Origin: Candidula unifasciata
Taxonomy: Eukaryota > Mollusca > Gastropoda > Stylommatophora > Geomitridae
Assembly (NCBI GenBank): GCA_905116865.2
Contig: CAJHNH020007557.1
Location: forward strand, 1 to 64,000
Direction: 5' to 3'
Length of the DNA: 64,000 nt
Shown: in pieces, positions 18,201-21,200 of the stretch
Position numbering within the stretch: position 1 is the stretch's first letter
Layout: each line of letters begins with the position of its first letter
Notes under the pieces: model-generated
What the model was told of the DNA's origin: nothing
Database searches by the model: none
What the model saw: only the letters and a program-made list of their open reading frames with translations
Made by a program: the position numbers and the translations under genes

Positions 18201-21200
18201 TAATTGCTGAATTTCCACCTCTGTAGCACCTGCTGGCCAGTCTCTGCATTCCCGGCTCAGCATGACTATTACTCTACACAAGTCTGACTGTTCAGGTGGC
18301 ACTTTGACCCACTCCTCTCCTCGCCTAATGTTCTCAAGGATGCAAACCTGTCTGATTGTGTCTTCTGTCTGAGCCATCCATGACATCCCTTTTAACAGCT
18401 GCTGACCCTTAACTGCACCCAGAGCTTCATGCAGAGGGTGGTCTGTGTCTGCAGCTACCCTGAGATATGGCTTCGCCTGCAGCAACTTGTGCCTACCTGC
18501 AACTGTCGGCAAACCAAGGATGTATCGCATACACACCACTTGGGTGTCTCTGGTGCAACCCAGAATGACCCGCATTGCTGCGTTCTGTATGCGCTCTAGT
18601 TTGTCCATCTGACTCTTTGAGACGGTAAGCAGTCCCAGGCCATAATCCACCACTGACAGGATCAGGTGCTGATATAGTGCGAAAAGCATTCTCTGCTCTA
18701 TGTCAATTGCAGCCATAGTCTTAAGTGCACTAAGACCTTTTTGGCATCTCGTCACAACACTCTCCACATGGTCCTTAAATGACAGCCTCCTATCAAATGT
18801 AATTCCCAGATATTTCAGTTTGCTCTCTCTGTTGACGTTTCAACCATCTATCATGAGACTTGGGACATTAGTTTTAACGATTCTGTTGTCCAGAGAACAC
18901 AACAAAACAGACGACAGCCCTCATTTCTGTACACCACTCAGTCCCTTTGTCTACTGTCGCTTGTAGCTCCCGAGCTGTTTGTTCCCTCTCTTCCCCCTGC
19001 CTATATGCAAGTATATCATCCGCAAGAGTCAGTATCCTTCCAACTCCTGTTGCTTCTAGGCTTGCAATCTTGCTCGTATACACGTTGAAGAGCACAGGCG
19101 AGATGGCGGATCCTTGTGGCAATCCTGGGGTCAAAGTGCATGGTTCAGAGGTCCATGAGCCCAGTCTGAGAGCAACCCGACGTGAATACAGGACAGCTGC
19201 AACCCAATTCATCAGCCATGGACTGACCTCCTTCTCCCTCAGTGCAGTCATTAAGATATCGTGTCTCACTCTGTTATAAGCATCCTCGAGATCCAGTCCT
19301 ACCGCCATAGTTTCCTATGTTTTTATGTGTATGTTTTTAGGCATCATTTTTCACTCCTGCTGTGGTGAGTACCGACAATTTTTTCCCTTTAAAAAAAAGC
19401 CCTGCTTGGGGCTAAATGTCCATGACATAATAAGTGGCCATCTCTGTACTGGAGCTAGGCACACATTTGACTGCTGGAAACTACTCTTGTAGCAGAGGTA
19501 AGAAAAAAATACCATGTGGGTGTGGAGTACAAGGAGAAACTAGCATGATGTTGTCCCAAGAGTATTCTTACAAACAAGTCACAAACATTAAATGAAGAAT
19601 GTTATTCCACACATGAATTTACTGAACGATGTCAGAATAACATTAGACAATATTTCTTTCTAGCATTTGTATTTATGTAAGAAATTCTTGTCTAAAAGTG
19701 AGATTACTCTTGTAATTAGATTTATATGTTTAAGAGTTAATTCCCCTGACAAATATTATTTGTGCAGCTGAGGAAACAGCCCTGTTGTGTATTATCTATC
19801 TTTCCCTTTCAAGCAATAATTGCTTTTTTTTTTAAACCAAATGAGTTGTAATTAAAAGCAATCAATACACAGGTCTGAAGGAGTTCAACACAGAAATGTT
19901 GGGACATTAGTAGTTCATATGAAAGGATCATATAACATTTGTCTGTAATAAAAGACAGCATACACACTGTATTATTTTCATAAAGAGCAAGAAACATGTC
20001 AGAAGTTCCTCATGTTGTTTCTGCGACTGTCTAGGAGAGGGGTTCTCAACCTTCCTAATGCGGTGACCCTTTAATACAGTTCCTCATGATGTGGCGACGC
20101 CAACCTTACAATTATTTTCCTTGCTACTTCATAACTTCAGTGAATATATGTTTTCCAATGGTCTTAGGTGACCCATGTAAAAAGGTCATTTGACCCCAAA
20201 AAAAGGGGTCAACCCATAGGTTGAGAACAGCTGGTCTAAGAGGATAATGGACCCCACTGCCTCTTAACAAGCAGTTTGACTAATTAATGGTTCGATGAAA
20301 CTGGATGTGTTGAGTCAAAAGGTGCAGACATTGCAGCTGAGCTGTGAACAACAACTCAAGATACCAATCACTCTTTTTAGGGTGAAGGCAGAAGAAGAAG
20401 AAGAATAAGAAGTATGGTGAGTGTTTGGTACTGAAATGGTTAACAATGTTGTAAGGAACCAGTGAACAGTGCAGAAGCACAGATGGATCATCACGGTCTG
20501 AGGAGAATGGATTCTGGAGTGGTCAGAGGATCTGGCCGACGAACAAAACTTAAGGGAAAGGTGAGATGGATATACAATCAGACGGTTACTGGTACCATCA
20601 GAGTTGGAACTCTTTGCTGCTGAAGATAAGGACAGAGCGCTTATAGGAATGTCCTGAGTGCTGTAATGTCTATTCTTATTTAAACATTTAACATTAATGG
20701 TGATTGCTGCTTTTTTTTCCCAGTTCACTGACAGGTCAATAGATGACCTCACTTACCCTTACCCTTTGAACCAATCCTACAATCAGCAACAATCAATCGC
20801 TGTCAAAGGTAATTTGTATCTAGAATGTCCTTGTGTAGCGTCTCATGTTTTACTTCCATAGTGTATCTTCTAAGCTGAACAGGTAAATACTATGAAAAGA
20901 TATCAGACCAAATGAGAAGTACAGCTGGTCAGCTTCACATTATCACAATCACAAATGACAATTGGGCATTGTGGCTAGAAAACCTTCATCAGCATACAAC
21001 ACAAATGAATGAGGATACAAGAATACACACAATCACTTATCTGTGAGTTGAGGTCTCTCATAGAAAAATTCACATGCGTCTTTTCACTCACCTTAACAGG
21101 TGAATAGAACAGGTGGGCTGTTGGTGGGACAGGTGTGGTTGGTTGTGTGAGGTGTAGGTGTCTGATTTGTGTTCGTTTTGTGTGGGATGGTGATGATCGG

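What the first reader, a model, noticed from the sequence alone, without database searches (positions are those of the whole stretch)
20029..20241. SPIN (SPACE INVADERS)-like hAT MITE in an invertebrate genome
A 197-bp element with SPIN-type termini, SPIN-type internal segments and an 8-bp duplication with one mismatch sits in an intron of the C2-domain gene. SPIN is a textbook case of horizontal transfer among tetrapods, with few invertebrate hosts (a triatomine bug and Lymnaea). A copy here would either extend the host list or fix the lineage of this genome.
Basis: partly seen in the sequence, partly recalled or inferred. Interest (0 to 1): 0.75.

Follow-up and report, generated by a model that had tools for sequence, protein, structure and literature searches.

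The report
SPIN transposon copy in land snail
This is a decayed copy of SPIN, a DNA transposon best known for jumping between backboned animals, in the genome of a European land snail that carries at least dozens and probably thousands of such copies, which extends the element's invertebrate host range.

Summary
Window 20037-20233 is a 197-bp non-coding element with hAT-type ends and an 8-bp target-site duplication, 7 of 8 identical. [quoted passage not shown] Related copies abound: 40 scored of 4,040, 5,126 and 4,857 first-look candidates in three overlapping searches. A predicted frog protein (Staurois parvus) has a stretch 22 of 26 identical to the translated snail consensus. Longer remnants exist. 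So it is a SPIN MITE, inferred to have reached snails by horizontal transfer. The kind is known: a SPIN-like hAT is published for Biomphalaria, and hAT transfer for Lymnaea (second-hand). No transposase source was found among 30 of 150 scored hAT loci, and the C2-gene context was not confirmed.

The parts
20029..20036 (+). left copy of the 8-bp target-site duplication, GTCTAGGA
   Evidence: 7 of 8 identical to 20234-20241; flanks agree at >=6/8 in 31 of 40 genome copies, against 9.6% of mismatched flank pairs
20037..20233 (+). SPIN-family non-autonomous hAT element (MITE), 197 bp, decayed copy; all six frames hold stops
   Evidence: 10.7% different from the 40-copy consensus
20042..20052 (+). 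left terminal inverted repeat core GTTCTCAACCT
   Evidence: 100% complementary to 20218-20228
20218..20228 (-). right terminal inverted repeat core AGGTTGAGAAC
   Evidence: 100% complementary to 20042-20052
20062..20087 (+). SPIN-type 5' internal core
   Evidence: single match in the window, 0 in 100 shuffles; pattern written from this copy
20234..20241 (+). right copy of the target-site duplication, GTCTAAGA

Best explanation
The element is one fossil copy of a SPIN (SPACE INVADERS) MITE in the land snail Candidula unifasciata. An internally deleted derivative of a longer SPIN was mobilised in trans by a SPIN (Buster-type hAT) transposase: the enzyme bound the inverted ends, cut the element out, and inserted it at sites centred on TA, leaving 8-bp duplications. 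It multiplied and then stopped, and the copies have been decaying since. Shown: structure, duplications, many related copies, TA-centred targets in most copies, near identity of the consensus to tetrapod SPIN as recalled, and longer remnants. Inferred: the transposase acting in trans, the end of activity, and arrival by horizontal transfer, since a neutrally evolving non-coding sequence could not stay about 95% identical between snail and tetrapods by descent.
For: Inverted repeats and duplication. In 31 of 40 copies the flanks agree at >=6/8, against 9.6% of mismatched pairs, and 27 of those 31 have TA in the middle; in the second set 23 of 30 (13.1% of mismatched pairs) and 22 of 23. Consensus of 40 copies 185/197, and of 30 copies fetched with that consensus 188/197, to a SPIN sequence typed, before any copy other than the window's was seen (first seen). 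Of 9 sites where the first consensus differs from it in the two ungapped parts, the recalled base is the second commonest among the copies at 8. Real records: 15 database proteins fetched with a recalled SPIN peptide, one from the frog Staurois parvus; in translated search 13 of 15 hit the window element at E<=1, 10 of them at E<0.05, and all 15 hit consensus 2 at E<1e-3 in a search of that one sequence, the frog one 22/26 aa. Long remnants L118-L120 continue past the short MITE and match a recalled long SPIN 5' end at 85.6-89.6%. Host.
Against: The SPIN yardsticks are recalled, not from a database; the short one was typed with the window copy in view, the long one after the long snail loci had been printed. 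The window copy alone is 87% (169/194; 163/196 in another alignment), so its identity rests on the family. Two of the 15 database peptides have no hit at the element (P0132, P0135). None of 30 hAT-dimerisation loci examined, of 150 scored, shows SPIN ends, so the transposase source is unknown. The copies compared are the best-scoring ones, so divergence is underestimated. In the third set only 12 of 17 copies have flanks agreeing at >=6/8 and only 7 of those 12 have TA in the left copy.
Confidence: 0.93

Rival explanations
1. It belongs to another hAT (OposCharlie1, hAT1, or a mollusc-specific Buster family) that shares only the common CAG..GGTTCTCAACC ends with SPIN.
For: The end motif is shared among Buster/Charlie elements (recalled). 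No OposCharlie or other hAT consensus could be compared here.
Against: Similarity to the recalled SPIN is as strong inside as at the ends: 84/86 and 67/70 internal sites in consensus 2; 40 of 44 sites at positions 16-59 in the window copy.
Confidence: 0.04
2. The snail SPIN was inherited by vertical descent, either from a bilaterian ancestor or from the common ancestor of pond snails and land snails, rather than arriving separately in land snails.
For: Related hATs are published for Biomphalaria and, second-hand, Lymnaea, so one invasion of a common snail ancestor is possible.
Against: Descent from a bilaterian ancestor does not fit about 95% identity of non-coding sequence. For a common snail ancestor, the 30 copies of the second set differ from their consensus by only K2P 0.06-0.12, little for a split that I recall as more than 100 million years old; but those copies were picked for closeness, and no snail rate was measured.
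Confidence: 0.25
3. Vertebrate contamination of the assembly.
For: SPIN is best known from vertebrates.
Against: Copies lie on many contigs with their own duplications. The about 28-bp internal stretch of the recalled tetrapod form is lacking in the 40, 30 and 17 copies aligned (overlapping sets). The window contig carries a snail Ten1 exon and gastropod-like LINEs.
Confidence: 0.01

Closest known systems
SPIN MITEs of tetrapods, short rodent-type form (URR1 / SPIN_NA; names and sequence recalled)
   Same: Ends, 8-bp duplications, 98/101 bases of the 5' part and 82/85 of the 3' part of consensus 2
   Different: The main snail form lacks about 28 bp in the middle and has its own junction sequence there
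SPIN-like hAT of Biomphalaria glabrata (about 1,000 copies; PMC5440852, passages seen)
   Same: Gastropod host, hAT, significant identity with SPIN; that paper found no intact DNA-transposon transposases in its assembly
SPIN of Rhodnius prolixus (PMC11614815, passages seen) and hAT transfer involving Lymnaea stagnalis (PMC4344730, passages seen, citing Gilbert et al. 2010, not held; that the Lymnaea element is SPIN is recalled)
   Same: Invertebrate hosts of vertebrate-associated hATs
   Different: Sequences not held, not compared
SPIN in the western painted turtle, 385 elements, hAT-Charlie (PMC4054807, passages seen)
   Same: Family name
   Different: Vertebrate host; sequence not compared

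Membership tests
hAT superfamily | 8-bp target-site duplications | tested here: met
   Window 7/8; flanks agree at >=6/8 in 31 of 40, 23 of 30 and 12 of 17 copies
hAT superfamily | short terminal inverted repeats | tested here: met
   11/11 core arms
Buster group of hATs | target preference nnnTAnnn (motif recalled; the passages say only that Ac and Buster differ in target choice) | tested here: met
   TA at positions 4-5 in 27 of 31 and 22 of 23, but 7 of 12 in the third set
SPIN | high identity to SPIN along the whole short element, not just the ends | tested here: met
   188/197 of consensus 2, 84/86 and 67/70 internal, against a recalled sequence; frog record P0137 22/26 aa
SPIN | an autonomous SPIN with its transposase in the same genome | tested here: inconclusive
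   Longer remnants found; no SPIN ends in 30 loci of 150 scored hAT-dimerisation matches, of 2,154 candidates
MITE | short, non-coding, homogeneous length, high copy number | tested here: met
   194-204 bp, ends extrapolated, in 40 copies; first-look candidates 4,040-5,126 with 40 scored each, so the true copy number was not counted
OposCharlie1 | identity to the OC1 consensus | not tested
   No OC1 sequence on hand

The most novel reading that the evidence does not exclude
SPIN invaded the land-snail (stylommatophoran) lineage in its own horizontal transfer, separate from those in pond snails, and amplified there to a high copy number from a longer founder, so that terrestrial snails, which carry trematodes and nematodes of land vertebrates (recalled), are a further relay of the SPIN wave.
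Probability: 0.45. Interest if true: 0.6.

Novelty: new member of a known kind. Interest (0 to 1): 0.45.

Why it matters
SPIN is a textbook horizontal transfer. Its presence in many copies in a terrestrial snail widens the invertebrate host range beyond a blood-feeding bug and freshwater snails and makes a direct test possible: whether snails were invaded once or repeatedly, and before or after vertebrates, can be read from copy ages and orthologous empty sites across gastropod genomes. The kind of element and the process are not new.

Tried and rejected
Exact SPIN patterns in viral contigs and genome contigs: no match. Peptide-based scans of viral contigs and genome contigs: no relative confirmed. 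blastn against phages: two weak hits at E 0.6. DNA strings as search terms in papers: none. Rfam and tRNA scans of the window: nothing. Full-text searches for a land-snail SPIN report: 'land snail' + SPIN + hAT + transposon gave 0 papers; a gastropod search gave 2, of which Biomphalaria is the relevant one; earlier SPIN searches are. These cover open-licence papers only, and supplements were not read. Vertebrate contamination was considered and rejected. An age in years was not computed: no snail mutation rate was measured, and the copies are a best-scoring sample. The whole-genome search for more long copies did not complete, nor was a pattern count.

Full report
WHAT IS THERE. Window 20037-20233 is 197 bases long, starts GAGGGGTTCTCAACCT and ends AGGTTGAGAACAGCTG. 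The core arms 20042-20052 and 20218-20228 are perfectly complementary. The eight bases on either side agree at 7 of 8. No second copy was found in the 64-kb window. All six frames hold stops.

WHOSE GENOME. The Ten1 exon at 41484-41789 (-) is 100% identical over 97% of the query to a Candidula unifasciata protein; the only other hit is Bradybaena similaris at 80% (2 hits of 4 candidates). That protein's contig is 396,198 bases long, the same as the window's contig C6934. A LINE reverse transcriptase at 26563-27393 gave 544 hits, 120 listed; among the listed rows the animal names shown are gastropods (Arion, Elysia, Batillaria, Nucella, Littorina), two rows are labelled as a bacterial metagenome bin, and most have no name. 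GC is 40.1% in the window and 40.69% in the published genome (passages). The held assembly has 1.345 Gb in 7,176 contigs, whereas the paper reports 1.286 Gb and 8,586 scaffolds, so it may be another version. C. unifasciata is a stylommatophoran land snail. The words SPIN and hAT do not occur in the main text of the Candidula paper; its supplements were not read.

THE FAMILY. Three searches of the own genome scored 40 candidates each: of 4,040 (window copy as query, 43 matches), 5,126 (consensus as query, 40 matches) and 4,857 (recalled SPIN as query, 42 matches). The sets overlap, and candidate numbers are not copy counts. I fetched all 40 full places of the first set (L001-L040), 30 of 40 of the second (L071-L100) and 20 of the third, namely 17 new loci (L101-L117) and three already held. 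In the first set 31 of 40 flank pairs agree at 6 or more of 8, against 9.6% of mismatched pairs, and 27 of the 31 have TA at positions 4-5. In the second set it is 23 of 30 (13.1% of mismatched pairs) and 22 of 23, in the third 12 of 17 and 7 of 12. TA in the middle is what I recall for Buster-group hATs; the passages seen say only that Ac and Buster differ in target choice.

IS IT SPIN. The window copy is 163/196 identical in a MAFFT alignment and 169/194 in a global one. The majority consensus of the 40 copies is 185/197, that of the 30 copies of the second set 188/197: 98/101 in the 5' part and 82/85 in the 3' part, and with 15 bases removed at each end 84/86 and 67/70. The one large difference is a missing internal stretch of about 28 bases. 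At 8 of the 9 sites where the first consensus differs in the ungapped parts, the recalled base is the second commonest among the copies. A sequence written down beforehand that is closer to the family consensus than to the one copy then in view is what is expected of a real relative. Real records support it: a recalled SPIN peptide found 15 proteins among 21 candidates, 14 with no organism named and one from the frog Staurois parvus. In translated search 13 of the 15 hit the window element at E<=1, 10 at E<0.05, the best at 8e-8; P0132 and P0135 do not; three shuffled windows gave no hit at E<=0.01. Against consensus 2 alone all 15 match at E<1e-3, the frog one at 22 of 26 residues. Fetching these records with a recalled query selects SPIN-like ones, but the snail side is independent of it.

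LONGER RELATIVES. Three places matched roughly bases 5-141 of the recalled SPIN at 87-91%, including the part missing from the short snail form. I fetched 761 bases of each (L118-L120). L118 and L120 share about 329 bases at 78%; L119 shares about 200 with each at 77-79% and also has a match to the SPIN 3' end about 360 bases on. A recalled long SPIN 5' end of 257 bases matches L118 at 232/259, L120 at 220/250 and L119 at 178/208. L118 and L120 are thus closer to the recalled SPIN than to each other, as in a star. That recall was typed after the loci had been shown, so it counts less. None of the 17 further copies has the tetrapod middle stretch.

SOURCE OF MOVEMENT. hAT dimerisation domains are common (150 scored of 2,154 candidates). 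None of the 30 loci fetched shows SPIN ends at E<=0.1. The transposase is unknown or lost. The Biomphalaria paper likewise reports no intact DNA-transposon transposases.

AGE. Copies differ from their consensus by K2P 0.114 on average in the first set (0.092 without CpG) and 0.087 in the second (0.075 without CpG). The best place scored is 93% identical to the first consensus, so recent movement was not seen. As these are the best-scoring copies, the true mean is probably higher, and no date is given.

HOW IT GOT THERE. About 95% identity of a non-coding element between a snail and tetrapods (as recalled) does not fit common descent, so transfer between lineages is the reasonable reading; direction and carrier are open. 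Snail reports seen are Biomphalaria (passages) and Lymnaea (passages, second-hand, naming hAT but not SPIN). A separate entry into land snails is my boldest reading; it leans on the moderate divergence of copies and is untested.

CONTEXT. The claim that the element sits in an intron of a C2-domain gene was not confirmed: no C2 hit in the ORFs scanned or by a crude motif scan; short exons were mostly not scanned. The one host gene clearly seen is Ten1, more than 20 kb away.

Noticed in passing
41472-41879 (-): Exon of Ten1, a telomere-capping CST subunit (Pfam Ten1_2, E 1e-16), identical over 97% of the query to a Candidula unifasciata protein.
   Followed up: partly
45710-45945 and 46171-46238: Two degenerate TTAGGG-type arrays in opposite orientation about 225 bases apart: interstitial telomere-like repeats or the ends of another mobile element.
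   Followed up: no
14656-15909, 17652-19314, 26560-28538, 50564-51112: Fragments of several LINEs (reverse transcriptase and RNase H domains); the one searched has gastropod relatives.
   Followed up: partly
1924-9376: Successive tandem arrays with periods 29, 24, 33, 45 and 27, open in several frames.
   Followed up: no
one of 91 ORFs in alignment A3: A DDE_Tnp_1_7 (piggyBac-type) transposase match, E 6.8e-9; which ORF it is was not looked up.
   Followed up: no
L024 (C2031), upstream of its SPIN copy: Three extra copies of the SPIN 5' end in tandem, 89 bases apart, just before a full element.
   Followed up: no
L118: A tandem array of about 54-bp units begins inside or just after the SPIN 5' remnant.
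   Followed up: no
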